A stretch of DNA of 39,120 nt from NCBI GenBank assembly GCA_021157735.1, contig JAGGVZ010000046.1, forward strand, positions 1 through 39,120, given 5' to 3'. Every line of letters starts with the position of its first letter. The stretch's first letter is position 1. Positions 415 to 39,120 of the stretch are shown one piece after another. Source of the DNA: a bacterium. Lineage in GTDB: Bacteria; Patescibacteriota; Microgenomatia; UBA12405; BS750m-G30. The position numbers and the translations under genes were made by a program. The notes below the pieces were generated by a model, which worked only from the letters and a program-made list of their open reading frames with translations, made no database searches and was not told the origin of the DNA.

Positions 415-420
415 CAAAGT

Positions 421-5733: not shown

Positions 5734-5741
5734 CTATTTTA

Positions 5742-6343: not shown

Positions 6344-6348
6344 TGGTG

Positions 6349-6422
6349 TCGGAGCGGCGGGACTTGAACCCGCGACCTCAGCGTCCCAAACGCTGCGCGC
6401 TCGCCAACTGCGCCACGCTCCG
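6349..6422 (-). tRNA. tRNA-Pro(TGG)
   Basis: CGGAGCG/CGCTCCG acceptor; loop TTTGGGA. Confidence 0.92.
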
Positions 6423-6429
6423 GATTTTG

Positions 6430-6514
6430 TGCCGCGGGAGGGATTCGAACCCTCACGCCCTTGTGGGGCACAAGATTTTAAGTCTTGCCTGTCTGCCAAT
6501 TCCAGCACCGCGGC
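6430..6514 (-). tRNA. tRNA-Leu(TAA)
   Basis: GCCGCGG acceptor, loop CTTAAAA, long variable arm. Confidence 0.92.
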
Positions 6515-6883: not shown

Positions 6884-6887
6884 GCGG

Positions 6888-6958
6888 TTCGGGGACGTGG
6901 ATTCGAACCACGATTCGCAGCTCCAAAGGCTGCTGTCCTACCGTTAGACGATCCCCGA
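6888..6958 (-). tRNA. tRNA-Gln(TTG)
   Basis: TCGGGGA/TCCCCGA acceptor; loop CTTTGGA. Confidence 0.9.
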
Positions 6959-6965
6959 ATGTAGG

Positions 6966-7038
6966 AGCGGCGGAGGGGATTTGAACCCCCGACCTTCTCC
7001 TTGGCAAGGAGACGTTCTGCCAGCTGAACTACCGCCGC
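6966..7038 (-). tRNA. tRNA-Gly(GCC)
   Basis: GCGGCGG/CCGCCGC acceptor; loop TTGCCAA. Confidence 0.92.
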
Positions 7039-7053
7039 TGGTAATGAGCTAGG

Positions 7054-7126
7054 AGCGGGAGACGGGATTCGAACCCGCGACCTTCTCCTTGGAAGGGAGA
7101 TGCTCTACCAACTGAGCTACTCCCGC
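7054..7126 (-). tRNA. tRNA-Gly(TCC)
   Basis: GCGGGAG/CTCCCGC acceptor; loop CTTCCAA. Confidence 0.92.
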
Positions 7127-7135
7127 GCAACTGGG

Positions 7136-7208
7136 TGCCGAGGGTCGGAGTCGAACCGACATCCCGGGTTTTTCAGACCCGTGCCGTGACCGGCTTGGCT
7201 ACCTCGGC
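7136..7208 (-). tRNA. tRNA-Phe(GAA)
   Basis: GCCGAGG/CCTCGGC acceptor; loop CTGAAAA; short variable loop. Confidence 0.9.
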
Positions 7209-7283
7209 AAAATGCCTATTTATAGGAAAAATTTTAACGTATATTTTTTAAATTATACAATATTTGCTCTGTTTTTAAAAGGG

Positions 7284-7368
7284 TGCCGAGGGGGGGATTT
7301 GAACCCCCACGCCCTATACGGACACAGCCTCCTCAAGGCTGCCTGTCTGCCAATTCCAGCACCTCGGC
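7284..7368 (-). tRNA. tRNA-Leu(GAG)
   Basis: GCCGAGG acceptor; loop TTGAGGA; long variable arm. Confidence 0.92.
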
Positions 7369-7414
7369 TCACGATAAATATAATATCAAAATCCTCTTTC
7401 TTTAGCTACTTCAG

Positions 7415-7488
7415 TGGCCGCTAGAGGACTCGAACCTCTGACCTTCCGGATGTAAACCGGACGCTCTAACCAACTGAGCTAAGCGGCC
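7415..7488 (-). tRNA. tRNA-Val(TAC)
   Basis: GGCCGCT/AGCGGCC acceptor; loop TTTACAT. Confidence 0.92.
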
Positions 7489-7492
7489 TCAG

Positions 7493-7577
7493 TGCCAGAG
7501 GGGGGATTTGAACCCCCACCCCCAAAATGGGGACACGCTCCTGAAGCGTGCCTGTCTGCCAATTCCAGCACTCTGGC
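7493..7577 (-). tRNA. tRNA-Leu(CAG)
   Basis: GCCAGAG/CTCTGGC acceptor; loop TTCAGGA; long variable arm. Confidence 0.92.
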
Positions 7578-12870: not shown

Positions 12871-13538
12871 AAGATAATTTTAAAAAATTAATTGAGGCAG
12901 CCAAAAAATCCTTGGAAAATCCCGGTCACTCCCCTCGTCCTCTTCCTAAAAAGGAATCGAAAAAATTTTCTGTTATTTATGTCTTCCGTCATACAGAAAC
13001 TTATGATAACCGCCGCAGGGTCTTTTCCGGAAGAAGAAACACCCGCCTGACCCCCCGAGGGATTAAGCAAGCAAAACAACTGGCGAAAAAACTTAAGGAC
13101 AAAAGAATAGAGCTTGCCTATTGCCCTCCTTTAATAAGATGCAAATGGACTTTGCGGGAAGTTTTGCGATATCATCCGGGCGTGAAAATCATCGTCGATC
13201 CTTTATTGGTGGAGCGCGATTATGGAGAGCTCACCGGAAAGAGCAAACTTAAACTGATGCGGGAAAATTTTGAATTAGCAGTTAAATATCGCCGCGGCTA
13301 TGATTTTCCCCCGCCAGGAGGAGAAAGTTTTAAAGACGTCCAGACCAAAAGAATTTTTCCCTTCTGCCGTCGTCTGGAGAAGGAGTTGAGTAAGACAAAG
13401 AAAAATGTGGCCATTTGTTGTACTAATAACACGATGAGGTTAATCCGCATGTATTTTGAAAAATTGACTGTTTTTCAAATGCAAACTTTGGAAAATCCTT
13501 TTGGTGATTATGCTGCTTATGTAGTTAGACCTCACTGA
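12867..13538 (+). CDS. Histidine phosphatase / phosphoglycerate mutase family
   Basis: YVFRHTETYDNRRRVFSGRRNTRLTPRGIKQA; ATGA overlap with rsmI. Confidence 0.8.
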   Translation: MKDNFKKLIEAAKKSLENPGHSPRPLPKKESKKFSVIYVFRHTETYDNRRRVFSGRRNTRLTPRGIKQAKQLAKKLKDKRIELAYCPPLIRCKWTLREVLRYHPGVKIIVDPLLVERDYGELTGKSKLKLMRENFELAVKYRRGYDFPPPGGESFKDVQTKRIFPFCRRLEKELSKTKKNVAICCTNNTMRLIRMYFEKLTVFQMQTLENPFGDYAAYVVRPH

Positions 13539-14574
13539 AGCTCAGAAGACGGTTGTACTTGGCAATTCTTTCTCCCCGACAAGGGGCTCCGAACTTAACG
13601 AAATCAACATTCTCTTTAATGGCTAGGTCAACAATCCAGCTGTCATTAGTTTCTTCTCCGCGATGGGAAACAATAGTTTTTAGACCATATCGTTTGGCAA
13701 CAGCAATCGCTTCTGTTGCTTGAGAAATGGTTCCTTGCTGATTAGGTTTGATGATTACCGCATTGAAAAGTCCCTGTTCTCCTCCTGTAGCTATTTTTTC
13801 TGGATTTGTAACGGTTAAATCATCAGCAACAATCATTATCTCTTCTTTTATCTTCTTTGCCTCTTGAAAGAAAACTTTCCATTCTTCCTTTTTTGTTTCG
13901 GGAAGGGGGTCTTCAATACTTACCACCCGATAACGTCGCACAATATCAAGGAGCGTAGAGGGGGAGGGGGGAGAAGTATCAGCAGCCACATCCAAAGCCA
14001 GCGGCAGTTCTGTCTCTTCTTCTAATATTTTGATAACCTCTTCCTCGTTGTTGATGCCGAAAGGAGAAAATCCTCCCTCACTCCCTACTGTGGTCGCCAG
14101 GCCCTCTTTCTCCAACCGCTTTTTTACCTTTTCATAAGCATTTTTTCCCTCCTCAATGTTACTCACAATCACCATAAATTCCTGAATTTTTAAAGCGGGG
14201 TTTCCATGTTTTTTCCCTTCAAAAACAAGCATCATCATTTGGGGTAATTGAGAAGGAGAAGGTAAGGGTTGGGATTTAAAAAAGGCAGCGGAAACAGCCA
14301 AGGTAGCATTGCTCCCCCACGAGGGATTGTTCAGGAGTCTATCCAGTTCCTCCTGGGTTTGAGGAGAATTTTTCCTCAAAAGAGGGGAAATTTCTTTTTC
14401 TATTTGAAAAATAGCTTTCTCTGGAGAAACAGATTCTTTTTCTTCTTTTCCCCGGGAGATTCCCTGAGGAACAGCCGCTACAAATTCTCCTTTATCGGTA
14501 AGTAATTTACACTCTATAGTCCAATTTCCCGCTGAATTAAGAATTTTTCGCGCTTTTATTTCTTTAATTTTCAT
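13525..14574 (-). CDS. Divergent, shortened enolase-like protein
   Basis: QEFMVI, GSEGGFSP, SIEDPLPE, VADDLTVTN, IIKPNQQGTISQ, VSHRGEETNDS, KFGAPCRGERIAKYNRLL align with enolase motifs; SGASTG replaced by QGISRG. Confidence 0.75.
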   Translation of the reverse strand: MKIKEIKARKILNSAGNWTIECKLLTDKGEFVAAVPQGISRGKEEKESVSPEKAIFQIEKEISPLLRKNSPQTQEELDRLLNNPSWGSNATLAVSAAFFKSQPLPSPSQLPQMMMLVFEGKKHGNPALKIQEFMVIVSNIEEGKNAYEKVKKRLEKEGLATTVGSEGGFSPFGINNEEEVIKILEEETELPLALDVAADTSPPSPSTLLDIVRRYRVVSIEDPLPETKKEEWKVFFQEAKKIKEEIMIVADDLTVTNPEKIATGGEQGLFNAVIIKPNQQGTISQATEAIAVAKRYGLKTIVSHRGEETNDSWIVDLAIKENVDFVKFGAPCRGERIAKYNRLLSFSEV

Positions 14575-16874
14575 CTTTTTCCGCGGCGGATTTTTCTTTC
14601 CACCCAATAAACAATTTCTCGGGTTCTTTCAATGGCATCAGGATTTACCGAGATACTGGTAATTCCCCAACGAACCAACTTTTCTACCAGTTCGGGATAA
14701 TTACTAGGGGCCTGGCCGCATATAGAACTGGTAATGCCGTTTTTATTAGCGATTCTAATCACCCTCCTTAGTGACCAAAGGACAGCTTTGTTTCTCTCGT
14801 CAAAAACTCCTGCTACTTCACTGTTGTCCCTGTCCACTCCCAGAGTAAGCATTGTGAGGTCGTTGGAACCAATTGAAATTCCATCAATTCCTGCCTCAAT
14901 AAAATCTTGGAGGAGAATCACATTAGAGGGGATTTCCACCATCATCCACAATTTAAAGCTCGGACTCCTGGTTAAACCTACGGAAGCAAGAATTCTTTTT
15001 ATCTGAATTAGCTGTTCTGGCGTCCTTACGAAAGGCACCATTAGCCAGAGGTTTTTCAGTCCCATTTTGTTACGGACTTTTTTGATAGCCTCCAGTTCTA
15101 ATTGGAAAACTTCCGGAGAGGTTATATAGCGGATTGCTCCCCGAAAGCCAAGAAGAGGATTTTCCTCATGGGGTTCAAATTTCTCCCCTCCTTGAAGATG
15201 GCGGTACTCGTTAGTTTTAAAGTCGGTCGCCCGATAAACAACAGGGCGGGGGTAAAAAGCCCGGCAGAATTTAGCAATTCCTTTGGCCAATTCATTGGTG
15301 AAAATCTCCCCTCGCTTTTCTTCAAGTAATTTTTTGGGATGAACACCAATGCCGGCAATCATAAATTCTGCTCTTAGCAAACCAACCCCATCAACTTTCT
15401 CCTGGGCAACTCTTTTTGCTAAACTTGGCTCTCCCAGATTGACATAAATTTTAGTCGCCGTTTTTACATTTTTAGGCAGAACCTTTTTCTTTATTATCTT
15501 TTTCTTTTTAACTTCCCCTCGATATATTTTCCCGTTGGTGCCATCTACGGTAATAATTTCTCCCGTCTTGATAATTTTAGTTGCCTTTCCTGTTCCCACC
15601 ACACAAGGAATGGCCAGTTCTCGGGAAACAATCGCCGCGTGAGAGGTTTGCCCACCTTTATCGGTAACTATTCCCTTTGCCAACTGCATCGCCGGGACAA
15701 AATCAGGACTGGTCATCACCGTTACCAAAATATCGCCCTTTTTCACCTTTTTAATTTCTTTAGCTGAAAAGATAACTTTTGCCGGTCCAGTTGCTATTCC
15801 CGGTGAAGCCGCTTCTCCCTCCAAGAAAAGCTCCGCTTCTTTTATTTCCTTTTTAGAGGAAGAGGGAGACTTTTTCTTTAAAGTAGTAATCGGTCGTGTT
15901 TGCAGGATGTAAAGTTTATTTTTTTCCATTCCCCACTCGATATCTTGGGGGAAGAAGTAGTGTTTTTGAATGGCAATTCCCAGCTTCGCTAATTCAATAA
16001 TTTGGAGACTATTTAATTTTTGGACATTTTGCAGACTTCTGGGAACAGCAACTTTGGCTGTTTTCCCCCTGATTTTAATCAGCTGAACTTTTTGGGGATG
16101 GACCTCAATTTTGGTAATTTTTAAACTCTTTTTATCAACACAGTAATGGTCAGGAGTGACTGTTCCTTGAACAATAAGTTCTCCTAATCCCCAAACTGCC
16201 TCGCACACCAAGGTGTTTTTGTCATTGGTGATGGGATCGGTGGTAAACATTACCCCGGATACCTGCGATTGAATCATCTTTTGAATGGGAACGGCAATTC
16301 CTACCCGAAAATGGTCAAAGTGGTTTTTTTGCCGATAAAAAATTGCCCTGGGGGTGAAAAGGGAAGCCCAACAGTCGCGGACCCGGTTGACTACACTTGC
16401 CTCTCCCCGGACGTTAAGGAAAGTTTCTTGCTGTCCAGCAAACGAGGCGTCGGGGAGATCCTCAGCAGTAGCGGAGGAACGAACAGCCACATACGCTTGC
16501 TTTAATCCTCCCAGCGAGCCTAGTTTTAGGTAAGCTTTCATAATCTGTTTGGCAATTTCCTCGGGAATGGGAGTATTTTTAATAAGTCGTTGTATTTTCT
16601 CTGCTGCCTCCTGAAGTTCGGTTACATTTTCTGGATTAAGAACCTGAAGAATTTCTTCTATTTGTTTTTGTAAGTTACCGGCTTTGAGAAAATCGAAATA
16701 AGCATCAACAGTAACGACAAATCCCGGAGGAACAGGTATTCCTATTTGGGTCAACTCCCCCAAATTTGCTCCCTTTCCACCGGCGATGGGAATATCCTCT
16801 TTGGTAATCTCCTCAAACCACCGGATATATCTTTTCATTGCCTTCATTTTAAAGAGTTGCCAATAAATTGACAA
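14571..16874 (-). CDS. ppsA: Phosphoenolpyruvate synthase
   Basis: GGKGANLGELTQIGIPVPPGFVVT, AVRSSATAEDLPDASFAGQQETFLNV, catalytic GGQTSHAAIVSRELAIPCVVGTG, GSNDLTMLTLGVDRD. Confidence 0.93.
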   Translation of the reverse strand: MSIYWQLFKMKAMKRYIRWFEEITKEDIPIAGGKGANLGELTQIGIPVPPGFVVTVDAYFDFLKAGNLQKQIEEILQVLNPENVTELQEAAEKIQRLIKNTPIPEEIAKQIMKAYLKLGSLGGLKQAYVAVRSSATAEDLPDASFAGQQETFLNVRGEASVVNRVRDCWASLFTPRAIFYRQKNHFDHFRVGIAVPIQKMIQSQVSGVMFTTDPITNDKNTLVCEAVWGLGELIVQGTVTPDHYCVDKKSLKITKIEVHPQKVQLIKIRGKTAKVAVPRSLQNVQKLNSLQIIELAKLGIAIQKHYFFPQDIEWGMEKNKLYILQTRPITTLKKKSPSSSKKEIKEAELFLEGEAASPGIATGPAKVIFSAKEIKKVKKGDILVTVMTSPDFVPAMQLAKGIVTDKGGQTSHAAIVSRELAIPCVVGTGKATKIIKTGEIITVDGTNGKIYRGEVKKKKIIKKKVLPKNVKTATKIYVNLGEPSLAKRVAQEKVDGVGLLRAEFMIAGIGVHPKKLLEEKRGEIFTNELAKGIAKFCRAFYPRPVVYRATDFKTNEYRHLQGGEKFEPHEENPLLGFRGAIRYITSPEVFQLELEAIKKVRNKMGLKNLWLMVPFVRTPEQLIQIKRILASVGLTRSPSFKLWMMVEIPSNVILLQDFIEAGIDGISIGSNDLTMLTLGVDRDNSEVAGVFDERNKAVLWSLRRVIRIANKNGITSSICGQAPSNYPELVEKLVRWGITSISVNPDAIERTREIVYWVERKIRRGKR

Positions 16875-18842: not shown

Positions 18843-21800
18843 TGAGAATTATTACCGCTTTTAAGGATTGTCTGAATAGCTTTTTCTAGTTCTTCGCTAT
18901 AATTTACTCCTCCATTGAACCTGATTGTCTTTCCGTTGGGAAATTCAATAATGCAAGGAGTTTTCCCGGGGTTGTTTTTCAAAAGGGTGTTGAGCCTCAC
19001 TAAGGATTGGGTGCTAAACCCAGGAGGAATTTTAATTACCAAACTGGAGTCTTCTTTAAAATCTTTGGGGTGAACAATTTTTTCTGCAATCAAGGAAACA
19101 CGATCCTCTCTTCTGTCCACCTTTCCCTCAACCAAAATTAGTTGGTTGTCCTGAAGGAGTTCTTTTACTTCTTGGAAAATTTTAGGGAAAACCACGGTCT
19201 CGATTTGTCCGGTGTCGTCTTTAATCTGGACAAAAGCCATTTCTTCATTAGTTCTTCGGGTGACTGTTGTTTTCACCCGAAGAATAATTCCCACTACTCT
19301 GGTTCGACCACTGGTTTCCTCACCGTCCAGTTGGCTAATGGAATGAAAAGCAAGTTTTTTGTATTGGTTTATTTGCTTTTGAAGAGGATCTTCAGTGAGG
19401 TAAAATCCGAAAAGTTCCTTTTCAAAACTTAAAATTTCTTGAAGAGAAAATTCTTCTACTTCAGGAAGAGAAACAGCCATTGGCTGGGGATTGCTATTGC
19501 TGTTTTCTGAAGAATTCCCCTGATCGAACAGGCTGGTTTGTCCCGAGGCTTCTTGCCGTTGTTTCTCCTCTGCTCTACTCCTCACCTGGTCCAGAACCAT
19601 CAGTAAAGCCGCTCTTTTTCCAAAGCGATCCATTGCTCCTGCCTTAATTAAGCTTTCAATTACCTTTTTGTTTATTTTTTGGGTGTTGGTCCGCTGGCAG
19701 AAATCAGCTAAAGAACTGTACGGTCCCCCTTTCTCTCTGACTTGGAGGATTTCCTCTATTGCTGCCTCGCCGACATTTTTTATTGCCGAAAGTCCAAATC
19801 TAATTGCCAGTCCTTCTTTTGATTCCGGGTCCTTTTCAATAGTAAAGCCTTCATGGGAGAGGTTGATATCGGGGGGAAGAACCTTAATCCCCATCCGTCG
19901 GCACTCCTGAATTGCCAGGGGAATTTTAACATCTTTTGCTTGTTGGGTACCAGAACTAGCTTCGGCAGTAAGCAGGGCGGCCATAAATTCTACCGGATAG
20001 TTGGCTTTCATCCAGGCTGTTTGGTAGGCAATCATCGCGTAAGAAACAGAATGGGCTTTGTTAAATCCGTAGCCAGCAAATTTTTCTATTAAAGACCAAA
20101 CGTTTTCGATTACCTTCTTATCATATCCTCTTTCTAAGGCTCTTTTGGTGAACCTCTCTTTTTCCTTTTTCATTAACTCTATCTTTTTCTTCCCAATAGC
20201 CCGGCGGAGGATATCGCCTTCTCCGAGGGTATATCCGGCCATTACCTGGGGGATTTCCATACACTGTTCTTGGTAAACGGCAATGCCATAGGTTTCGGCA
20301 AGAACTTTTTCTAAATCTGGATGGGGATAAGTGATAGTGCGAGGGTTTTTCTTGCCCCTGATAAAATCATCAATAAATTGCATTGGTCCTGGCCGGTAGA
20401 GAGCGACCATAGCAGCAAGATCAGAGAATCGTGAGGGGCGGAGCTTTCTTGCCACCCTTCTCATTCCCTCACTTTCCAGTTGGAAAACACCGGTAGTTTC
20501 CCCTCGGGAGATCATTTCGTATACTTTTTTGTCGTCAAGAGGGATTTCTGAAATATCCACATCTATTCCCCGGGTGGCTTTTACGAATTGATGAGCTTTT
20601 TCCAAAATAGTTAAATTCCGCAATCCCAAGAAGTCCATTTTTAAAAGGCCAACAGCGTTGTCCGAGACATTCAAATCTAGAGAGTACATATCATATTGGG
20701 TGGTGATTCCTCCCCCCTTGCTATCTAATTGAAGAGGAGTATAGTTAACTAGTGGTTTATCAGAAATGACTACTCCGGCTGCATGAGTAGAGGCGTGACG
20801 CGCTACCCCGGTAAGTTTTTTGGCCAGGTCAAGAATTTTTCTTACATCAGGGTCGCTTTCATAGGCAGATTTTAGCTCGGGATTTTCCTCCATCGCTTGG
20901 TCGATAGAAATTTTCTTCCCCGGAGCGGCTGGGATCATTTTGGCAATTCTGTCCCCTACTGAATACGGATGCCCTAAAGCCCGAGCTACATCTCTGATTG
21001 CTAATCGAGACTCCATCGTTCCAAAAGTGATAATTTGGGCCGTGTGGTCTTCACCATATTTTTTCCGGACATATTCAATCACCTCATCGCGACGATCATC
21101 AGGAAAGTCAAGATCAATATCAGGAGTTGATTTTCTTTCCGGATTTAAAAATCGTTCAAAAGGCAGTTTATGGTAGAGAGGATCGATAGAAGTAATTCTT
21201 AAAATATAAGAAACGATAGATCCGGCCGCACTTCCCCTTCCCGGCCAACGCGAATCCCTTGGCTTTTTGCCCAGTTAACCAGATCCTGAACGATGAGAAA
21301 ATACTCCGCGTAACCCATTTTGATAATAATATCTAGCTCGTACTCCACTCTTTCTTTTACCTCTTTGGTGATTTTTTTATACCGCAAAGGCAGTCTTTCA
21401 TAAGTTAATTTGCGCAGGTAAGATTCCGCTGTTTCTCCTTCCGGGAGAGGAAACGAAGGATAGACTTTTTGCCCTAGGGGAATTTCCAAGTTACACTTTT
21501 CCGCTATTTCCTGGGTATTTTTAATTGCCTCGGGATAATCTTTGAAGATTTCTGCCATTTCTTCAGGAGAACGAAGATAAAAATCAGGAGAATTAATCAT
21601 ACTTAAGCGGTTGGGGTCATTTACTGTTTTTTGAGTTTGGATGGCCAGAAGGACATCTTGGGCCTCGGCGTCTTCCGGTTCAATATAGTGGGAATCATTG
21701 GTAGCTACTAAGGGAATTCCTAATTCTCGAGAAAGTTGGATGATTCCTTTATTAGCAATTTCTTGCCGAGGAATTTTGGGGTGGTGCTGGATTTCAAGAT

Positions 21801-26605: not shown

Positions 26606-27742
26606 CTACACCTTACCAAAAAACCTTTCTGCTTTAAAGAGGAGATTTGTCTTCTCTTTCTGGAGAATACCAGGAGTATTCTTAACAGCTTTTTCGATAA
26701 TGGCTAAAGTTTGATCATAAATTTGCCGGTTAACAAAATAGGGAGTGCCATCTTTCCCTCCGTGGGCAAAAGTGTAGCGGGCGGGATCTTGGTATGAGGG
26801 TTTAGCGCCATAGATAATTTCTGCTACTAGAGAAATAGCCCGGATGGTTTTGGGTCCTACACCAGGAGTCATAAGCAGTTTTTCAAAATTAGTTGGTTGA
26901 GCAATTAAAGCCTGATTGATTGCCCGTCTAAATTGAGGTGATTCAAGAGACAATAAAGTTTCTCTTTCTACGGGGTGATGGTGAAATTCTGTTCCTGGTA
27001 AGGATAAAAATTTAAATTGCCAATCCTTTGTCTTGACAGTGAGGATTTTTAAATCCCGCAGAAAAGTCTTTGGTTTCCGGACAAGTTGAACCGCCACTTG
27101 GCGGTTGGCCCGACTTTTTTTAGAGGTTAGGTTGAGTACCGTAGGTAAGAATATTTGCGAACTGATGCCACTATGAGGTTCTTCAATAAATTTCTTTTTA
27201 GTATCCCCCAGCCAGTGATATCTTCTTGCTCGTCCCCGAGAAATATTCATCCCTTGTTGAATTACTGTCCACTTTCCTGTTTTGGTAAAAATGAAATTAT
27301 GGTGGTAAAGTTGAAAGCCATCTTGAATTAAAGCACTATCTACTTTAGCAGCTGCTCGGGAAGAATATTCTAATCTTTTCACTACTTTTTCATTTAATCC
27401 TAAGCGCCAGCCCCAACTGTTAATTTCTTCTGGCGTTTTCCGGGAGGTTTTCCCTTTTCCTCCACAGATGAAAACACCCAAGTCTTTCTCCAGTCCCTGA
27501 AAAGCAACCTTTAAAGCTCCCAAAGTAGTGGTGGTTAATCCTGAAGCATTCCAATCGAAAGCCAAAACACAACCCAATGACTGGAACCAAACTGGATCAG
27601 CCAGCCTTTTCAAAAACTCTTCTGGCCCAAATTCTCTAATAATGGCAATTCCAATTGCCCGGGCCAGCCGGACCATTCGCCCAAACAGCCATCGTGGACA
27701 CCGTCCATAGTCTAAAGTAAACTCCGCAACCCCAGTACGCAT
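26606..27742 (-). CDS. DUF763 family protein
   Basis: MRTGVAEFTLDYGRCPRWLFGRMVRLARAI, DWNASGLTTTTLGALK, LLMTPGVGPKTIRAISLVAEIIYGAKPSYQDPARYTFAHGGKDGTPYFVNRQIYDQT. Confidence 0.88.
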   Translation of the reverse strand: MRTGVAEFTLDYGRCPRWLFGRMVRLARAIGIAIIREFGPEEFLKRLADPVWFQSLGCVLAFDWNASGLTTTTLGALKVAFQGLEKDLGVFICGGKGKTSRKTPEEINSWGWRLGLNEKVVKRLEYSSRAAAKVDSALIQDGFQLYHHNFIFTKTGKWTVIQQGMNISRGRARRYHWLGDTKKKFIEEPHSGISSQIFLPTVLNLTSKKSRANRQVAVQLVRKPKTFLRDLKILTVKTKDWQFKFLSLPGTEFHHHPVERETLLSLESPQFRRAINQALIAQPTNFEKLLMTPGVGPKTIRAISLVAEIIYGAKPSYQDPARYTFAHGGKDGTPYFVNRQIYDQTLAIIEKAVKNTPGILQKEKTNLLFKAERFFGKV

Positions 27743-29278: not shown

Positions 29279-30140
29279 ATGAATAATTCTCTTTTAAGTT
29301 GGACAAAAGCTACTCTTCAAAAATTATCTTTAAAACCAGACCTAAAACATAAAGGTCAGCATTTTCTTGTGGACAAAAATCTGGGGAAATTTTTAATTTC
29401 TCAACTGCCGGAATTACCGATAATTGAGATTGGTTCTGGCTTGGGAGCAATTACCGGGTTTCTTGTCCAGAGAAATCTTCCTGTTGTTGCGGTAGAAATT
29501 GACCGCCGGTTTGAACCAATATTAGCTCCTTTACAAGAAAAATATTCCAATCTAAAGGTAATTTTTGCCAACGTTCTGAAAGTTGATTTTTCTCAAATAG
29601 AAAAAGAGTTTAAATTTAAAAACAAGGTTTGGCTGACAGGAAATCTTCCCTATCAGTTAGTGGAGCCGTTATTATTAAAATTGGTAAGAAATCCGAAAGA
29701 AAGAGAGGTAATAGCAGGGGCTACCTTTCTTATCAGTGAACGCTCGGCTCGGGAGATGGGGAAATTGAAGCCGCCACGAGGCAAATTAGGAATTTTGGCT
29801 ACTAGTTTATTTAATTTCCAGTTAATTAAAGTTGGAATCGGGAAAGAAAATTTTTGGCCTCCTTCCCGGACTAGTTCTGCCATCGTTAAGTTAACTAAAT
29901 TAAAACCAAAAGAGCTTTACTCTTCTCCATCTCGCTTCTTTGGTACCGACTGTTTACCCATCCAAGAAGCAAAGTAAAAAATAGTCTTCGAGAAGGACTG
30001 GTTATCTTATTCCAAACCACTAAGAACCAAGCAAGAGCAATAATTAAAAAATTAGGATTATCGGAAAATCTATTAGAGAAGACAGTTGAACAACTCAATG
30101 GGAACCAGCTTGAAGAACTCGACAAGGCCATCTTCAAAGT
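29279..30140 (+). CDS. rsmA: 16S rRNA dimethyladenosine transferase, frameshifted near 29935-29942
   Basis: KHKGQHFLVDKNLGKFLISQLPELPIIEIGSGLGAITGFL, LTGNLPYQLVEPLLLKL; C-terminal helix bundle FTHPRSKVKNSLREGLVILFQTTKNQARAIIKKLGLSENLLEKTVEQL lies in another frame. True end uncertain. Confidence 0.8.
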
Positions 30141-30244
30141 TAGTAATAATCAAAAGTCTTTTCCGCTCTGCTCTCTTTCTAGTTCGGAGAAGAAATTTTC
30201 TGTTTTGATCAGTTCTCTCTTTTCACTTATCATTTTACTTTTCC

Positions 30245-30785
30245 TCACCGATAGTCTTCGTTGGCTTTTCGAGTAAATTCTGCTAACTCGGCATCGGTCA
30301 TTAGCTTAATCCCTAGTTCTTTAGCAGCCTGTTTAATTCGCTTTTCCGCCCATTTTTTTCACTTGCTTGGGTGATAAGAACTTCTAATATGATAACCCCA
30401 AACTTTACTCCACTTTAGCGCTATTTCTACATCTTTGTATCTATAGTTATGATGCTTCTGAGAAGATTCTTGAACCTCAGTGAATCCCAATTTTTTAAAC
30501 ATGGTGACGACCTTTTCTACTTGAGAAGGATCAATAGGAATTTCTGTCTCTTCAAAATCACTCCCCTTACCTATTTTGTTTAACTTCAAAACTATTTTTG
30601 CTGTTCGCTTTGGTTTATTGTCAACAACTTTAAGAAGTTTATCAGGAAGAATAAAGAAAAGGATGTTCTTATCATCTGGCCCCAAATCTTCAGCATTCTG
30701 ATCCAAAAACTTTTTTTAACTGATTGTATTTTTCCTCTGAAAAAATGGCTCGAAATTCAATTTCGATTCTTTTCTTCTGGTCCAC
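30245..30785 (-). pseudogene. CYTH-domain protein (class IV adenylyl cyclase/triphosphatase-like) with three frame changes
   Basis: GTG DQKKRIEIEFRAIFSEEKYNQLKK | FLDQNAEDLGPDDKN...KHHNYRYKDVEIALKWSKVWGYH | LEVLITQASEK | KWAEKRIKQAAKELGIKLMTDAELAEFTRKANEDYR* across frames. Confidence 0.7.
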
Positions 30786-31887
30786 AATGGATCTTGGCAA
30801 GACTTTTAATGTAATGGTTGATGATTTTATCTGCTTCGTTTTTCCAGGAATAGTTTCTTTCTACCCATTGTCTAGCCTTAACCAACTTCTTTTTTGGAAT
30901 TGAACGCGAGAAAAGTCGAGTTATTAGTTGGGGATATTTATCTAAATTATCCTCTATGATTAGATGATTTCTAATTGTTTCCTTCAACCCCTCGATTGCT
31001 AAACCAGTAGCAATAGTTGGTATTCCTGCTGACAAATAAACGAGTATTTTTAGGCGAGTTCCTGATCCTGATGTAAGCGGAGCAAGAGCTATTCTAGTTT
31101 GTGAGAGTATCGGGTTTATATCGACAACTCCTCCAGTAAATTTAACTTTTTCTCCAAATTTTTTCATTTTCTGAGAGAGATATTTAGGGTAATTGCCTAC
31201 AAAAACAAATTCGGCTTGAGGTAAATTTTTTACAACAGGAGGAATAATTCTTTCTCTGATTATATTTACTGCTTCCTCATTTGGTTTATAAAACATATTT
31301 CCTAAAAATAAAACCAGTTTTTTGTTTGTTCTATTATTTTCGAATTGATAATTTTCTGGAGTAATGCAGCCACGATATAAAACGATTTTTTTCCTATCGA
31401 TTCCTATTTCGACTAAATCCTGCTTGTCTTTTTTTGAGCGGGCTAGAATTAAGTCGCTTTTTTCGCCGGCAATGCGTTCATATTTAATTGCCTTTTCAAT
31501 TTTCTTTTTGCTTCCGCCAAGGCGCGTGATTAATGTGTGATTAACATTGAGTACTTCCCAAACCTTTAAGCACCTTTTTCCTACCAAGTCTGCTTGAAAG
31601 GAAACTGCTTCAGCGCTGTCGAAGTGGCAGACGTTAATCTTATATTTTTCAATTAGATGTTGATAGAGTCTTGAGTTAATATAAAAATCACTTGGCTTAA
31701 TAAAAATTGTAGTAAAAGGTTGTTTTAAATATAACTGGTAATTATCCCAACCACGATAACACCGAAATAGAAAAACATTTGTGTTTTTCTTTTGTGCCAT
31801 TGTTTTAATTAGGCCGAACAATGATTCTGACCCACCTTCTTGAGGAGGAAGAAATGGTCCATCGCGGAAAAAGGCTACTCTAAGCAT
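30757..31887 (-). CDS. Glycosyltransferase family 4-like (GT-B)
   Basis: FFRDGPFLPPQEGGSESLFGLI, LVLFLGNMFYKPNEEAVNII, LAPLTSGSGTRLKILVYLSAGIPTIATGLAIEGL. Confidence 0.85.
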   Translation of the reverse strand: MLRVAFFRDGPFLPPQEGGSESLFGLIKTMAQKKNTNVFLFRCYRGWDNYQLYLKQPFTTIFIKPSDFYINSRLYQHLIEKYKINVCHFDSAEAVSFQADLVGKRCLKVWEVLNVNHTLITRLGGSKKKIEKAIKYERIAGEKSDLILARSKKDKQDLVEIGIDRKKIVLYRGCITPENYQFENNRTNKKLVLFLGNMFYKPNEEAVNIIRERIIPPVVKNLPQAEFVFVGNYPKYLSQKMKKFGEKVKFTGGVVDINPILSQTRIALAPLTSGSGTRLKILVYLSAGIPTIATGLAIEGLKETIRNHLIIEDNLDKYPQLITRLFSRSIPKKKLVKARQWVERNYSWKNEADKIINHYIKSLAKIHCGPEEKNRN

Positions 31888-32444
31888 TGAAGCAAAATTA
31901 TCTTTATTACCTTTTTAATTGGCAACTTACTAGAAATACTTATCTTTGGGACTTCCGGCTCCATTAGTGGAAAGATGTTTTCATAAAAGTGCTTCATCTT
32001 TTTGAGACAATAGTTATTGGTCCATGGGCTGCGAGGACTTGGTTTGCGGTTTTTTCTGATGAAACAGAATTTTATTGGGCTACGAAGATAAATATAAAGA
32101 TTAGGTGGAATTAGCTTCTTTCTAAAACTATTTAGATACCATTTTCGAGCAATGGTAAAGGAACTGTGATGCTCGGGGTCATTTCTAACAGCATAATTAA
32201 AAGCTAAAGTTGAGATGTAATTTCTGTCTACAACTACATGTTGATGTTTAGAACACATTTTCCTAGCCAAGGTACACTTGTTTTCATCATTGATAAAATA
32301 AGGGTTTTTAAAATCTTTTTGCTTCTTTATTTCATTTACATCTACTACAATTTGCTCTACTAAACCAAAGGAATATTCCTTTGCCAATAGTTCTGCAATA
32401 GTTGTTTTACCTGCTCCGGGTAATCCTTCCAAAACTATAATCAT
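31875..32444 (-). CDS. P-loop (deoxy)nucleoside/thymidylate kinase-like protein
   Basis: Walker A MIIVLEGLPGAGKTTIAELLAKEY; VVVDRNYISTLAF (DR motif). Confidence 0.75.
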   Translation of the reverse strand: MIIVLEGLPGAGKTTIAELLAKEYSFGLVEQIVVDVNEIKKQKDFKNPYFINDENKCTLARKMCSKHQHVVVDRNYISTLAFNYAVRNDPEHHSSFTIARKWYLNSFRKKLIPPNLYIYLRSPIKFCFIRKNRKPSPRSPWTNNYCLKKMKHFYENIFPLMEPEVPKISISSKLPIKKVIKIILLQCLE

Positions 32445-33501
32445 GTCTTTTGTTAACCTCTCTTAATTTGCTTTTGTCAGCAACAAAATACCACGATTTA
32501 TTTTTGAACAGTTGGTAATTAGTTCGAAAACGGCCCTTGATTAGAAGTTCTTTAATCCAATATGGCATGTGGGAAATAACCTTTTTTCTAATTACTTCCT
32601 TTTTAATAAAAAAGACATCCTTTCCTAATATAAGCTTTTTGTTAAACTCTTGATATTTTTTAAAAGTAAGTTTTCTTAATAATCGTGCTTTTCCTACATA
32701 TTGTTTTTCGTTGAAATTTCCAAATAACTCTTGTAATTTTTTCCTTGCTTCTTTGTTGTATACAGTTATTTCTAAAAAACCATTTCTTTTCAGAAGAGGG
32801 AAAATTGCAAAGAAGAATTCTTCTGGAACAGAAAAAAAATCAATCACATTAGTAGTGATAATAAGATTAAATTTTCCTAGCTTTTCTGGAGAATAATAGC
32901 AAATATCAGCTATTATAATTTTTTTAGGAAGTTTAAATTTTACACCACTAAAGCCGATAAGCCCCACTCCTTTTTTGATTAAGGAAAATTGCCTTTTGTC
33001 TTTTGGACCTCTCGTTATTCCAAGTATTTTGTCGAAAATTTTTACAGAAACTCTATCATCTCTTGTTAAGAGAAATTTTTTGAATTGATTAAGAGCTGCC
33101 AGATATTCTTCTTTTGGGATATCAATCTTTTCTCGTTGATGAGCTCTTTTCCTTTTCCCTATTAAATGGAGAAGAAATGCTTTGCCTACATCTTTTAGGC
33201 TAGCTCCTCGATCTATTAACCAACATGCATATAATTGGGATATTGCAGCTATAGGATTTTTTTCTACGACAACGGTTGAGTAACCTTTAGCAGCAAGATA
33301 ACAAGAATATAATACTCCCCCAACGACTAGAATCTGATTGGATGTTCTTTGTGATAAATCAATTTGTTTGCTTACAGAATCAAGCCAAAATCGACTTTGA
33401 TTTGGCCAAAAGAAGGTTCTTTCTTCTTCGTACTTTTCTGCTTGTTTAACTAAAGATGGTAATACCTGTTGAAGTTTTTTCTCATTCATGTTGAGAATCA
33501 A
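32407..33501 (-). CDS. Putative SAM-binding Rossmann enzyme (methyltransferase or aminocarboxypropyltransferase-like)
   Basis: ILVVGGVLYSCYLAAKGYSTVVVEKNP and LIITTNVIDFFSVPEEFFFAIFPLLKRNGFLEITVYN resemble motif I and motif IV-VI; family not certain. Confidence 0.45.
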   Translation of the reverse strand: MILNMNEKKLQQVLPSLVKQAEKYEEERTFFWPNQSRFWLDSVSKQIDLSQRTSNQILVVGGVLYSCYLAAKGYSTVVVEKNPIAAISQLYACWLIDRGASLKDVGKAFLLHLIGKRKRAHQREKIDIPKEEYLAALNQFKKFLLTRDDRVSVKIFDKILGITRGPKDKRQFSLIKKGVGLIGFSGVKFKLPKKIIIADICYYSPEKLGKFNLIITTNVIDFFSVPEEFFFAIFPLLKRNGFLEITVYNKEARKKLQELFGNFNEKQYVGKARLLRKLTFKKYQEFNKKLILGKDVFFIKKEVIRKKVISHMPYWIKELLIKGRFRTNYQLFKNKSWYFVADKSKLREVNKRHDYSFGRITRSR

Positions 33502-34148
33502 AGGTCATTTCCTAAATGTTCCTTTTTTAGTTCTCGAAAGAAATTTTTGATTTTCTCAAATCTCTTTCTTGCTACTGATTTACTGGTCTGAAAATAAAGC
33601 TTTCTTAAAAGTTGCTGACGACCTTTCTTTCCTTCTTTTTTCCAATATTCCATTTCTTCCGCTAAGTTTAATTTTGCTAATGCCGCATAAGTAAAGGTAC
33701 GCCAAATTTGTAAATAGCCGAAATTACCTAACTCGTCAGCATCTTTTAATACTTTTGCTTCTAGTAATTTTGGCTCGTTTTCTTTGCTTTCTAAAATAAT
33801 TTGACTACTTTTTTCGATTAATCTTTTATCTTTAACTACTTTGCCAATGATTGATTCCAGTTTTTGAACAGCAATAGAAACATGATCTTTATTAGCTTGA
33901 GATTGATAGTCAATCATTCCCTGTTTGTTAACGGCCTCGATTTTACCAATGTCGTGGAATAAAGCAGCGATAAAAAGAGCGTCAAAGTCAACACTTAGCT
34001 TTTCTTTTTCAGCTATTTTTATTGCAAAAGTAGCTACTTGAACTCCATGAAAAAAACGATACTCCTTTCCCCCTCCTAACTCGAAAGTATTTTTGAAGCT
34101 TTGATAAAGAATATCAATTAATTGCTTCCTTTGCGCTCTGCTTAGCAT
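33498..34148 (-). CDS. HD-domain phosphohydrolase
   Basis: RFFHGVQVATFAIKIAEKEKLSVDFDALFIAALFHDIGKIEAVNKQG...LKDADELGNFGYLQIW (H...HD...D). Confidence 0.8.
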   Translation of the reverse strand: MLSRAQRKQLIDILYQSFKNTFELGGGKEYRFFHGVQVATFAIKIAEKEKLSVDFDALFIAALFHDIGKIEAVNKQGMIDYQSQANKDHVSIAVQKLESIIGKVVKDKRLIEKSSQIILESKENEPKLLEAKVLKDADELGNFGYLQIWRTFTYAALAKLNLAEEMEYWKKEGKKGRQQLLRKLYFQTSKSVARKRFEKIKNFFRELKKEHLGNDL

Positions 34149-34270
34149 TTTATCTTTTCTTGTCGATAGTCTTCGTCAACTTTTCGAGTAAATTTTGCTA
34201 ATTCAGAAGAAGTTTTTCTGCTTGCCAAAATTCCTTGTAGTGAAAGGATGCTTTTTATTGACTCAATCAT
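34142..34270 (-). pseudogene. 42-aa remnant ORF ending in a CYTH-like C-terminus
   Basis: MIESIKSILSLQGILASRKTSSELAKFTRKVDEDYRQEKIKC*; ELAKFTRKVDEDYR matches ELAEFTRKANEDYR of the 30245-30785 gene. Confidence 0.55.
34164..34204 (-). repeat. Direct repeat copy B (copy A at 30249-30289)
   Basis: cgatagtcttcgtcaacttttcgagtaaattttgctaattc versus cgatagtcttcgttggcttttcgagtaaattctgctaactc, 36/41 identical by eye. Confidence 0.75.
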
Positions 34271-34292: not shown

Positions 34293-36887
34293 TTAGCCTT
34301 TCTTTTCTAGTTTTAGTTCCCCCTTCTTTACTGTAATTACAACCCTGGCCCCTTCTTTCACTTTTCCTTCTACAATCATCATCGCCAGGGGGTCAAGGAT
34401 TTTGCTTTGGATAAGACGTTTTAAGGGGCGGGCGCCAAAAACCGGATTGTAGCCGTGTTTTGCCAACCACTTCTTAGCTTCTGGAGTAACCTCGATTTTG
34501 ATTCGTTGATCAGCCAGTCTTCGTTCCACCTGCTTAATTTGTAGGTCGACAATTTGCTCAATATGTTTTTCATTAAGAGATTCAAAAAGAACAATTTGGT
34601 CGAGCCGATTAATAAATTCGGGTTTAAAAGAATGGTCAATAATCTCTCTCACTTCCCGTTCCATTTCTTCTTTTGATTTCTTTCCTTCGGCGTACTGGCG
34701 GATTATTTCACTCCCAAGGTTGGAAGTCATAATAATGACGGTGTTTTTGAAGTCTACCGTTCTTCCCTTGCCGTCGGTGAGGCGGCCATCGTCTAAAACT
34801 TGAAGGAGAATGTTAAAAACCTGGGGGTGAGCTTTTTCAATTTCATCTAACAAAATAACTGTATATGGTTTTCGGCGCACTGCTTCAGTTAGTTGTCCTC
34901 CTTCTTCATAACCTACATATCCCGGCGGGGCACCAATTAACCGGGCAACTGAGTGTTGTTCCATATATTCGCTCATATCAATGCGCACCATGGCATTTTC
35001 ATCATTAAAAAGAACTTCTGCCAAAGCTTTGGCTAGTTCTGTCTTCCCTACTCCAGTGGGACCAACAAATAAAAAGGAACCGATTGGTTTTCCTTCTTCT
35101 TTTATTCCCGCTCGGGCCCGACGAATGGCATTGGCCACTTCCTTAACAGCATTTTCTTGATTGACTACTCTCTTGTGAAGTTCATCTTCCAAATGAGCTA
35201 ATTTTTCTGACTCGGCGGCAACGAGACGAGAGACAGGAATTCCGGTCCAACGAGAAACAATTTTGGCAATATCTTCTTCCGTTACCTCTTCTTTAATTAG
35301 CCGTTCTTCCCGGGGAATCTTCTGCCATTTACTTTCCCATTCTTTTAATTCTTTCTCTACTTGGGGTATTTGCCCGTATTTAATTTCTGCCGCTTTATTC
35401 AAATCCAGTTCTCGTTCTGCTTTTTTAAGATTTTCTTGGAGCTGATCTAATTTGGCTTTTAATTCTCTTATTTTGCTAACAATTTCTTTTTGCCTTTCCC
35501 AAGCAGACTTTAAGTCTCTTAATTTCTCCTTTTTCTCGGCGAGTTCTTTTTCTAACTTTTTTCTTCTCTCTTGGACGGTTTTAGCTTTTTCCTTCTTTAA
35601 AGCCTGGAGCTCAATTTCAATCTGAGTAATTTTTCGCTGTAACTCATCCAGTTCTGTGGGCATTGATTCTACTTCTATCTTAAGTGATGAGGCAGCTTCA
35701 TCGATAAGATCTATTGCTTTATCAGGCAGGAGACGATCACGGATATAGCGGTCAGAAAGAACAGCGGCGGCCACAATAGCATCGTCGCTGATTTTGATAC
35801 CATGGTGAATTTCATATTTTTCTTTAAGACCGCGGAGGATAGCAATAGTGTCTTCAACGGTAGGTTCCTCGATATAGACCGGTTGGAACCGCCGTTCCAG
35901 GGCAGCATCTTTTTCGATGTATTTGCGGTATTCCGCTACCGTAGTAGCGCCAATAGCATGAAGTGTCCCCCGAGCTAAAGCTGGCTTGAGCATGTTGGCG
36001 GCATCCACCGCTCCTTCCGCCGCTCCCGCGCCTACTAAAGTGTGCAGTTCATCAATGAAAAGAATATATTTTCCCGCTCCTGCCTCAATTTCTTTTAAAA
36101 CAGCCTTTAATCTTTCCTCAAATTCACCGCGGAACTTGCTTCCTGCCAACAAGGCGGCTAGATCCAAAGCCAGAATCTCTTTATTTTTCAAACTTTCCGG
36201 GACATCGCCAGCAACAATTCGCTGAGCCAGCCCTTCTACAATCGCTGTCTTCCCTACTCCTGGATCACCAACAAGGACAGGGTTATTTTTTGTCCGTCGC
36301 GAGAGAATTTGCATTACCCGCCGAATTTCTTTATCGCGGCCAATCACGGGGTCTAATTTTCCTTCTCGTGCCTGTTGGGTTAAGTTAATCGTGTATTTTT
36401 CCAGAACGTTATATTTCCCCTCTGGATTTTGATCGGTTACCTTTTGTGTTCCCCGGAGTTCGTTTAAAACAGCCTTAACCTTTTCTTTATCTATTCCTAA
36501 TTTTCGGGCAATTTCTTGAGTGGCCGAGTCTTTTTCCAATAGGGCAAGGAAAAGGTGCTCGCGGGAAATAAATTCGTCACCAAAAGACTCCGCTTCTTTT
36601 TGAGCTTGATTTAAAACCGTCCCTAGTTCTTGAGAAATATAAACTTGTCCTAGCTCTCCCCCTACTGTTGGTAAAGATTGAAGTTTTTCTTCCGCCTCTT
36701 TAACTAGCTCTTCAAGACTAATTTCTAGTTTTTTCAAAACTTCCACTACCACTCCCTCAAAATCAACTATCAAGGCGAGGAGAAGATGAAGAGGAAGAAC
36801 TTGGGGGTGGCGGTATTCTTGGGCTAACTCTTGGGCTCTAACCAAAGCTTGTTGAGAATTGTATGTTAGTTTTTCCGGGTTAATCAT
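34293..36887 (-). CDS. clpB: ATP-dependent chaperone ClpB
   Basis: Two AAA+ modules ([37 protein letters not shown]), middle coiled coil, Clp N-domain. Confidence 0.95.
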
Positions 36888-37827: not shown

Positions 37828-38715
37828 TTACTGATTGTGAAATAGTAAATTTTGGGAAACTTTTTCTCCTTTTAGGTTAGTGAAATGAAAATTTGGGTAG
37901 AGACTTCTGTAAATTTCGCTCATTCTGCGAAACTCTTTTTTGGGGAAATAGCACCATGGAAGACTTTGTTTTTTTATTCTTAATTTTTTTGATTCATAGG
38001 ATGGTGGAAATCCTGGGAGGTTGGTTATGTCTTGGACTTCTCCCTCTATTAGCCCTTTTTCTATAAGTTCTTTCCACCAAACACCATCTTGCTCTTTTTC
38101 AGAAATTGCGCTTTTTGGAGGTTGGACGGTGTAGACCTTACAGGGAATTTTTTTTAGTCCAAGCATTTTCATGGCCCCTGTTCGGTGCGTGCCATCTCTG
38201 ACGAAATAAACAGGCCCTTGTGGTCCTTGCATTTTTATCACCTCGATAGAAGAAGATCCCATACTCGAAGAATAGAGATTTATTCCAAAAATTCTTGCTA
38301 TTACTTCAGCCTGCTGTTCTAAATTATCTGTTTTAAATGCTTCAATAAGCGCTTGAGATATTTTTTGATGTTTTCCTTTTCTTCCATGATACTCATCTTT
38401 CCAGTTTTTTACAGCAGGAGAAACACTTCCTACAATTAATTTTACTGGCACCCATTCTTCTGTTGATTCTGTTATTTTCCCATAGTCTGGAAGGTGGCAA
38501 AATGGGATTTTCTCTAGTTCCTCTTCCTTTTCCTGCAGCTTTTCAGCTATATCTTTGTTTTCTAATTTAGTCCAAGGTTCTAATTCCTTCCGAAACTCTC
38601 CCAGAGCCTCCTGCATTATTCGTGAAAGAGAACTTTCATATTCTTGTTCGTCCATCTTTCTCCATTTTACCATTCCCAAAAATTCAACGCTTTCTGTATT
38701 TTTATTTTTCAGCAA
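37828..38715 (-). CDS. ParB/sulfiredoxin-like domain protein
   Basis: GPVYFVRDGTHRTGAMKMLGLKKIPCKVYTV (DGxHR motif). Confidence 0.6.
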   Translation of the reverse strand: MLKNKNTESVEFLGMVKWRKMDEQEYESSLSRIMQEALGEFRKELEPWTKLENKDIAEKLQEKEEELEKIPFCHLPDYGKITESTEEWVPVKLIVGSVSPAVKNWKDEYHGRKGKHQKISQALIEAFKTDNLEQQAEVIARIFGINLYSSSMGSSSIEVIKMQGPQGPVYFVRDGTHRTGAMKMLGLKKIPCKVYTVQPPKSAISEKEQDGVWWKELIEKGLIEGEVQDITNLPGFPPSYESKKLRIKKQSLPWCYFPKKEFRRMSEIYRSLYPNFHFTNLKGEKVSQNLLFHNQ

Positions 38716-39120
38716 GTCTCATTAATTCCCGGTAGCGGCAGTATTCGCAATTTTCCCCGGGAGGAGGAATTTCTTCAGAATCAAGACATTTTTTAATTTC
38801 AAAAAGAGTTGGTTCTACCCAGGAATCATCGCCTTCGTAAGCGATAATTTTCACTTCAAATTCTAGACGGGCGTCAAACTTGGGCCGATTTTTGGCGGCA
38901 TTGGCAAAAATAAAATAGCCGGTATTAGAAACTTTAAAACCATTCTTCCTGAAAAGCCACTGATAAACTTCCATCTGCTTTTTATACCCCTGCTTATACT
39001 CATCTTCCAAAGAAATATCTTTCTCCGTGCTTGTTGCCTTATAATCTACAATCAAAAGCTCGCCATTTTTATTTATCCAAAGATCATCCACGGCGCCAAA
39101 AATTAAAAGATTAGTCGGGG
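38702..39120 (-). CDS. PD-(D/E)XK (RecB/Cas4-like) nuclease, truncated by window edge
   Basis: Open frame from edge: PTNLLIFGAVDDLWINKNGELLIVDYKATSTEK; C-terminal cysteines ENCEYCRYRE; overlaps ParB-like gene. Confidence 0.7.
   Translation of the reverse strand, partial: PTNLLIFGAVDDLWINKNGELLIVDYKATSTEKDISLEDEYKQGYKKQMEVYQWLFRKNGFKVSNTGYFIFANAAKNRPKFDARLEFEVKIIAYEGDDSWVEPTLFEIKKCLDSEEIPPPGENCEYCRYRELMRLAEK

What the first reader, a model, noticed from the sequence alone, without database searches (positions are those of the whole stretch)
30245..34270. Translationally coupled cassette of unknown function: HD hydrolase, SAM-enzyme-like, P-loop kinase, glycosyltransferase, CYTH
All five genes are on the minus strand and each start overlaps the previous stop (33498-33501, 32407-32444, 31875-31887, 30757-30785). 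The block appears more AT-rich than flanking clpB and rsmA. Nucleotide-type kinase, HD hydrolase and CYTH phosphate-chemistry domains beside a sugar transferase and a putative SAM enzyme suggest synthesis or modification of a nucleotide-, phosphate- or sugar-containing small molecule. This is the best candidate here for an undescribed system.
Basis: partly seen in the sequence, partly recalled or inferred. Interest (0 to 1): 0.6.

Follow-up and report, generated by a model that had tools for sequence, protein, structure and literature searches.

The report
Swappable nucleotide-and-sugar enzyme cassette
A block of four tightly packed genes in a tiny uncultured (Patescibacteria) bacterium turns out to be one member of an apparently undescribed family of compact, exchangeable cassettes that pair nucleotide-processing enzymes with sugar-attaching enzymes, probably to make a decorated nucleoside-like small molecule whose identity is unknown.

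Summary
Four intact minus-strand genes (YpgQ/PenF-type HD phosphohydrolase, divergent SAM-methyltransferase-like protein, dNK/TMPK-fold kinase, GT4 glycosyltransferase) form a tight AT-rich block. The fifth, CYTH, is broken (shift at an A7 run, in-frame TGA). Remnants of a second CYTH and a second HD gene flank the block, so a CYTH-HD pair was once duplicated. The order HD-(NDK)-MT-kinase-GT4 recurs in two other genomes of the class at 35-74% protein identity, one at the same clpB locus, one elsewhere. At the clpB locus a congener of the first has an unrelated cassette of similar flavour (NDK-like, GT4, GT2, methyltransferase) between flanks 86-98% identical, and another has none: an exchange hotspot. 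Relatives of the GT4, kinase and HD occur in further operons with ThyX, TMP kinase, carbamoyltransferase, radical SAM, APH or NDK genes. Best reading: biosynthesis of a glycosylated or otherwise decorated nucleoside/nucleotide. The product is unproven; surface-glycan decoration and DNA hypermodification remain rivals. A short P-x-W terminal motif, on different enzymes in different cassettes, is suggestive.

The parts
33498..34148 (-). HD-domain phosphohydrolase, 216 aa, YpgQ/YedJ/PenF type
   Evidence: Pfam HD 7e-10; PDB 3b57, 5dqv (YpgQ) by profile; H34, H65-D66, D136 invariant in 5 homologues
32407..33489 (-). Divergent class-I SAM-methyltransferase-like protein, about 360 aa (ATG start inferred from relatives; the ORF extends to TTG 33501); P-x-W motif near its C-terminus (residue 313 of the 364-aa ORF)
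   Evidence: Methyltransf_23/31 hits up to 1.7e-5 in homologue L005 but below curated cut-off; low-confidence AF2 model, best fold matches are SAM MTases; homologues only in G040 and G106
31875..32444 (-). P-loop (deoxy)nucleoside/nucleotide kinase, 189 aa
   Evidence: dNK 2e-8, dTMP kinase TIGR00041 8e-11; AF2 pLDDT 85, Foldseek best hits deoxyadenosine kinase and TMP kinase E~1e-8; Walker A and DR-Y-STLA invariant
30757..31887 (-). GT4-family glycosyltransferase, 376 aa, distinct subfamily (FFRDGPFLPP, FRCYRGWDN)
   Evidence: Glyco_trans_1_4 7e-18; WbnH 4xyw in PDB; subfamily alignment A7
30245..30785 (-). Broken CYTH gene (GTG start 30785; shift at A7 run; in-frame TGA; tail ends 30245)
   Evidence: three-frame reading; fragment 30359-30706 weakly CYTH/CyaB, 2.5e-4 and 1.3e-4
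34142..34270 (-). Remnant: 3' tail of a second CYTH gene, running into the HD start
   Evidence: 64-nt direct repeat 34141-34204 vs 30226-30289, 81%; 42-aa ORF ending ...ELAKFTRKVDEDYRQEKIKC
30150..30233 (-). Fossil of a second HD gene: start codon region plus 3' end (MISEKRELIKTENFFSELEREQSGKDF*), interior deleted
   Evidence: 59-nt repeat 30148-30206 vs 33496-33554, 71%; C-terminus resembles the HD of G040 (...FFQELEREARGDDF)
34293..36887 (-). clpB: upstream border of the insertion hotspot
   Evidence: ORF; clpB borders the same site in G040, G041 and G042
26606..27742 (-). DUF763-type gene followed by gatC/gatA: downstream border of the hotspot in relatives (here rsmA and an LdcA-like gene lie between); the DUF763 name is by eye
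   Evidence: same clpB...DUF763-gatC-gatA order in G040, G041, G042; 81% identical to G040

Best explanation
An exchangeable accessory biosynthetic cassette that makes a glycosylated or otherwise decorated nucleoside/nucleotide. Proposed order of events (inferred): the dNK/TMPK-type kinase phosphorylates a (deoxy)nucleoside or its monophosphate, and an NDP kinase (cassette-encoded in G106, G325 and apparently G040, host-supplied here) completes the activation. In richer clusters a ThyA/ThyX-type enzyme may alter the base. The methyltransferase-like protein adds a SAM-derived group (in other clusters a carbamoyl-, phospho- or radical-SAM enzyme takes this place). The GT4 enzyme attaches a sugar from an NDP-sugar. 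The HD enzyme removes phosphate or pyrophosphate, either to release the product, as PenF does in the pentostatin/Ara-A cluster, or to clear competing nucleotides. Shown: conserved gene set and order, enzyme families, retained catalytic residues, cassette replacement at one chromosomal site. Inferred: all substrates, reaction order and product.
For: Same order HD-(NDK)-MT-kinase-GT4 in G000, G040, G106. Overlapping or closely spaced genes in nine related clusters. Recurrent partners are nucleotide enzymes (NDK, ThyA, ThyX, TMPK, Ham1, Nudix, PolyA_pol head) plus group-transfer enzymes (NodU-type carbamoyltransferase, APH, radical SAM, GT2, MT). HD is of the YpgQ dNTP-diphosphatase type (PMC8177086); PenF, a nucleoside-antibiotic cluster enzyme, shares that architecture (PMC11592144). 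A ThyX homologue, PolB, C5-methylates UMP in polyoxin biosynthesis (PMC5003785). Kinase fold dNK/TMPK. Hotspot: G040 and G042 flanks mostly 86-98% identical, cassettes unrelated, G041 has neither. Cassettes 6-13 GC points below their flanks in 5 genomes.
Against: No product, substrate or expression evidence. This copy has no NDK, ThyA/ThyX, transporter or resistance gene in the operon. The MT assignment is weak and motif I is not canonical. GT4 enzymes usually act on glycans or lipids, and the closest solved relative is an O-antigen GT. HprK-like and APH-like partners are not nucleotide enzymes.
Confidence: 0.45

Rival explanations
1. Surface-glycan or lipid decoration cassette: GT4/GT2 plus methyl-, carbamoyl- or phospho-transferases modify a cell-surface glycan, and the nucleotide enzymes only supply or recycle nucleotides.
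For: GT4 nearest solved relative is the O-antigen GT WbnH and it is TIGR03087-like; GT2 enzymes in five related clusters; the cassettes of G106 and G085 sit beside type IV pilus genes; variability at one site recalls surface-antigen switching.
Against: No flippase, polymerase or sugar-nucleotide biosynthesis genes; repeated nucleotide enzymes with retained catalytic residues; ThyX/TMPK/UDG operon in G022.
Confidence: 0.25
2. DNA hypermodification: a base-modified dNMP is made and phosphorylated (kinase, NDK), the canonical dNTP is destroyed (HD), and GT4 glycosylates the base in DNA.
For: Enzyme logic resembles phage systems (own knowledge); ThyA-like in G040 and ThyX, TMPK, UDG in G022; the GT4 relative in G604 lies near DUF6884, a nucleoside deoxyribosyltransferase and a Vut_1 transporter.
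Against: No DNA-binding domain; no thymidylate-synthase-like gene in this or most cassettes; no relatives of MT or GT4 in viral contigs, and only a weak 25% partial match in one phage record.
Confidence: 0.12
3. Nucleotide-centred conflict or defence cassette.
For: Patchy hotspot distribution; kinase matches PADLOC candidate PDC-M51B at 2e-11.
Against: MT and GT4 have no PADLOC match and the HD match (Cas10, 2e-4) is a generic HD hit; no effector or sensor domain.
Confidence: 0.08
4. Ordinary salvage or housekeeping genes that happen to be adjacent.
For: HD, kinase and GT4 are each common superfamilies.
Against: HD-MT-kinase-GT4 order is kept across genera; the MT marker is absent from 42 of the 43 other genomes searched in the order; cassettes differ at one site between congeners.
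Confidence: 0.05

Closest known systems
Nucleoside-antibiotic biosynthetic clusters (pentostatin/Ara-A with PenF; polyoxin with PolB)
   Same: YpgQ-type HD hydrolase; in relatives a ThyX-type enzyme, carbamoyltransferase and nucleotide kinases; compact co-directional genes
   Different: No known product, no resistance or transport gene in the cassette; the GT4 plus dNK-type kinase core is not known to me from those clusters; hosts are reduced-genome Patescibacteria
YpgQ / YedJ / Lin1889 HD phosphohydrolases
   Same: H...HD...D motif and near full-length profile match
   Different: Conserved DADEL-NFG-LQIWR segment in place of the DADRLDAIGA-GIAR of YpgQ/Lin1889; operonic with GT4 and kinase
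Deoxynucleoside kinases / thymidylate kinases
   Same: Fold, Walker A, DR-Y motif
   Different: About 20% identity to solved members; subfamily seen here only in the cassettes; substrate unknown
Phage DNA hypermodification gene sets
   Same: Combination of nucleotide kinases, dNTP hydrolase and GT
   Different: Bacterial chromosomal, no DNA-directed module, not found in the viral collections searched
GT4 glycosyltransferases of the WbnH / TIGR03087 type
   Same: GSGTRLKIL motif, GT4 domain
   Different: Separate subfamily in nucleotide-enzyme operons; scores far below the TIGR03087 cut-off

Membership tests
YpgQ/PenF-type HD phosphohydrolase | H...HD...D metal motif | tested here: met
   H34, H65-D66, D136 invariant in 5 homologues
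YpgQ/PenF-type HD phosphohydrolase | near full-length similarity to solved members | tested here: met
   3b57 4e-10, 5dqv 4e-8 over about 180-190 residues
YpgQ/PenF-type HD phosphohydrolase | nucleotide (pyro)phosphohydrolase activity | not testable with these tools
   needs an assay
dNK/TMPK kinase superfamily | P-loop kinase fold with DR-Y motif | tested here: met
   AF2 pLDDT 85 and Foldseek hits at E~1e-8; DR-Y-STLA invariant
GT4 glycosyltransferase | Glyco_trans_1_4 domain above cut-off | tested here: met
   65.8 bits vs 27
GT4 glycosyltransferase | E-x7-E catalytic motif | tested here: inconclusive
   region reads GSGTRLKIL[VTED]Y[LM]; the second acid is kept only in some members
Class-I SAM methyltransferase | motif I G-x-G-x-G | tested here: not met
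   [VI]GGVxYxxY instead in all three homologues
Class-I SAM methyltransferase | motif II acid and C-terminal half of the fold | tested here: inconclusive
   E80 invariant; Methyltransf_23/31 to 1.7e-5 but below cut-off; model pLDDT 45
CYTH | intact reading frame | tested here: not met
   frameshift and in-frame TGA; an assembly error is possible
Nucleoside-antibiotic biosynthetic cluster | nucleotide-modifying enzymes with transferases in one operon | tested here: met
Nucleoside-antibiotic biosynthetic cluster | dedicated export or self-resistance gene | tested here: not met
   none among the ORFs of the cassette; the MFS gene lies in the gatA-gatB context and is also present in G042, which lacks this cassette
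Nucleoside-antibiotic biosynthetic cluster | bioactive nucleoside product | not testable with these tools
   needs expression and metabolomics
Phage-type DNA hypermodification system | thymidylate-synthase-like base-modifying enzyme in the set | tested here: not met
   absent in this cassette and in G106; present only in G040 (ThyA) and G022 (ThyX)
Phage-type DNA hypermodification system | occurrence in phage genomes | tested here: not met
   IMG/VR scans with MT and GT4 negative; phage records gave only a weak partial hit

The most novel reading that the evidence does not exclude
These cassettes are a new, modular class of biosynthetic system in ultra-small Patescibacteria, exchanged wholesale at chromosomal hotspots. 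A short terminal P-x-W-[IL]-x-E-[IL] tail, found on the methyltransferase, the glycosyltransferase or the kinase in different cassettes, is the shared tether or recognition tag (or even the modified peptide) that ties otherwise interchangeable enzymes to one common partner.
Probability: 0.2. Interest if true: 0.78.

Novelty: new variant of a known kind. Interest (0 to 1): 0.55.

Why it matters
Patescibacteria have very small genomes and are usually described as poor in dedicated secondary metabolism. A recurring family of tight, AT-rich, swappable cassettes that combine nucleotide chemistry with glycosyltransferases would point to an unrecognised class of small molecules made by these organisms, possibly used in contact with hosts or competitors. 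The hotspot between clpB and DUF763-gatCA gives a defined place to watch such cassettes being exchanged, and the four-gene core (about 3.4 kb) is small enough to synthesise and test directly.

Tried and rejected
The first genome-contig scan with the single MT protein found nothing; the HD alignment worked. Viral contigs: three scans negative. Plasmids and phages: only weak partial GT hits. PHROGs and PADLOC gave only superfamily-level hits. A BtaA/DUF3419-type origin for the MT-like protein, suspected from its insertion after motif II, got no Pfam support even at E<=10. A leave-one-out profile test of the P-x-W tail did not recover unseen copies at significance, so homology of the tails is not claimed; only the motif enrichment (0 of 229 background ORFs vs 7 of 64 cassette ORFs) is reported, and the motif was defined after seeing some of the cases. 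G347 and the phylum-level hits match only the generic methyltransferase region and are not counted as members. TGA recoding was considered for CYTH and rejected: the intact HD gene here ends in TGA and a homopolymer indel explains the first break. Integration of an element into the 3' end of CYTH was rejected because the displaced tail lies on the wrong side. Literature searches found no description of such cassettes, but only open-licence papers are searchable.
Full report
What is there. The window is one whole contig of a 680-kb, about 90% complete genome. The two relatives that carry the same genes are deposited as Candidatus Microgenomates and Candidatus Amesbacteria, so the class is Microgenomatia of the Patescibacteria (the class name is my reading of those titles). 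Four intact genes lie head to tail on the minus strand: HD (216 aa), an MT-like protein (about 360 aa), a P-loop kinase (189 aa) and a GT4 glycosyltransferase (376 aa). They are 33% GC against 41% for the rest of the contig. The CYTH gene downstream is broken: a shift at an A7 run, then an in-frame TGA. dnaE in the same contig is also out of frame, apparently by one lost base in a C/G run, so an assembly error cannot be excluded.

Local history. A 64-nt repeat (81%) places the end of a CYTH gene both just upstream of HD (34141-34204) and downstream of GT4 (30226-30289), and a 59-nt repeat (71%) places an HD 3' end just after the second copy. Read in frame, 34142-34270 is a CYTH tail and 30150-30233 is a gutted HD gene. 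The layout is therefore [CYTH' tail]-HD-MT-kinase-GT4-[CYTH, broken]-[HD' fossil]: a CYTH-HD pair was duplicated around MT-kinase-GT4 and complementary halves decayed.

Conservation. Among 374 genomes sampled from its class the MT-like protein has clear homologues in only two besides this one, and none among the other genomes of a 380-genome sample of the phylum. Both carry the whole set in the same order: G040 (L005) HD-MT-kinase-GT4, and G106 (L006) HD-NDK-MT-kinase-GT4. Identities to the window are HD 74/51%, MT 50/35%, kinase 66/36%, GT4 66/44%. For comparison gatA and gatB are 49% and 57% between G000 and G040. G040 adds, upstream and co-directional, an unassigned 355-aa protein (sulfotransferase-like by eye only), a protein that is NDK-like by eye and keeps the active-site His in alignment but has no Pfam match, a Ham1 protein and a short ThyA-like protein that keeps the Pro-Cys region.

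A hotspot. In G040, G041 and G042 the borders are clpB and DUF763-gatC-gatA; in G000 rsmA and an LdcA-like gene also lie between. G041 has only a small ORF there. G042, whose flanking genes are 85-98% identical to those of G040, has a different AT-rich operon: Nudix, a GT2 protein with an unassigned N-terminal part, an NDK-like protein, a GT4 of another subfamily, a weakly HprK-like protein and a methyltransferase. Cassettes of similar flavour but different content therefore occupy the same site.

A wider family. Profiles of the GT4 subfamily and of HD lead to further operons. G325: NodU-type carbamoyltransferase, HD, NDK, GT4, kinase, GT2. G022: GT4, APH, P-loop kinase, unassigned 420-aa protein, ThyX, TMP kinase, unassigned, UDG, GT2, with a divergent NDK nearby. 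G070: HIT-like, radical SAM, GT4, kinase. G554: kinase, GT4, kinase, GT2, GT4. G085: PolyA_pol-head/NDK fusion, GT2, HD, GT4, weakly HprK-like. Junctions are nearly all between -38 and +33 nt. GC is 6 to 13 points below the flanks in five genomes tested. Even close relatives of carriers lack the GT4 marker, so the distribution is patchy.

Enzymes. HD matches YpgQ and Lin1889 structures over nearly full length and keeps H...HD...D. YpgQ is a dNTP diphosphatase (PMC8177086); PenF of the pentostatin/Ara-A cluster has a similar predicted core and dephosphorylates Ara-AMP (PMC11592144). The kinase is dNK/TMPK-fold. GT4 is nearest in the PDB to WbnH. The MT-like protein resembles SAM methyltransferases over its second half only; its motif I is unusual and the model is poor, so its chemistry is open.

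A terminal motif. P-x-W-hydrophobic-x-[EQ]-[ILVA] occurs in 0 of 229 background ORFs and in 7 of 64 cassette ORFs, once in each of seven of the eight cassettes with this GT4 subfamily, always near a terminus: MT C-terminus (three, homologous), GT4 N-terminus (two), GT4 C-terminus (one), kinase N-terminus (one). The eighth cassette has a looser version at a GT4 N-terminus. A profile leave-one-out test did not establish homology, and the motif was defined after inspection. It is a lead, not a result.

Interpretation. The set is a real, conserved, mobile-looking accessory cassette and part of a diverse family; I judge that part about 85% secure. The most economical function is synthesis of a decorated nucleoside or nucleotide, because nucleotide enzymes recur while the transferases vary; that is inference (0.45). 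Surface-glycan decoration (0.25) and DNA hypermodification (0.12) are live rivals. It is not filed as a nucleoside-antibiotic cluster: no product is known and no export or resistance gene was found.

Noticed in passing
window 21060-21320: dnaE is split by an apparent one-base loss in a C/G run (GPGRGSAAGS region), suggesting assembly indels in this contig.
   Followed up: partly
window 29279-30137: rsmA/ksgA C-terminus is shifted out of frame near 29930; an assembly error or a recent loss.
   Followed up: partly
window 13525-14607: Short, divergent enolase-like protein (360 aa) next to a PEP synthase-like gene; the usual N-terminal catalytic loop looks altered.
   Followed up: no
window 6269-7577: Cluster of ten tRNA genes on the minus strand.
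   Followed up: no
L071 (G604:C2) 1-7198: Short contig with a GT4 relative beside DUF6884, nucleoside 2-deoxyribosyltransferase, Vut_1 (YhhQ-like) transporter, a reverse-transcriptase-like ORF and a 5'-3' exonuclease-like ORF; possibly a mobile element handling modified bases.
   Followed up: partly
L042 242-8280 (G022): Operon GT4-APH-kinase-420 aa-ThyX-TMPK-182 aa-UDG-GT2 with a divergent NDK; the richest nucleotide cassette seen.
   Followed up: partly
L062-L069 (relatives in the same class): HD homologues also sit in islands rich in Nudix, CYTH-like, phosphoglycerate-mutase-like and nucleotidyltransferase-like genes; in L063 an HD gene overlaps a CYTH-like gene, matching the CYTH-HD pair inferred for the window.
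   Followed up: partly
window 37828-39091: ParB-like 295-aa protein and a RecB-family nuclease-like fragment at the contig end (by eye).
   Followed up: no
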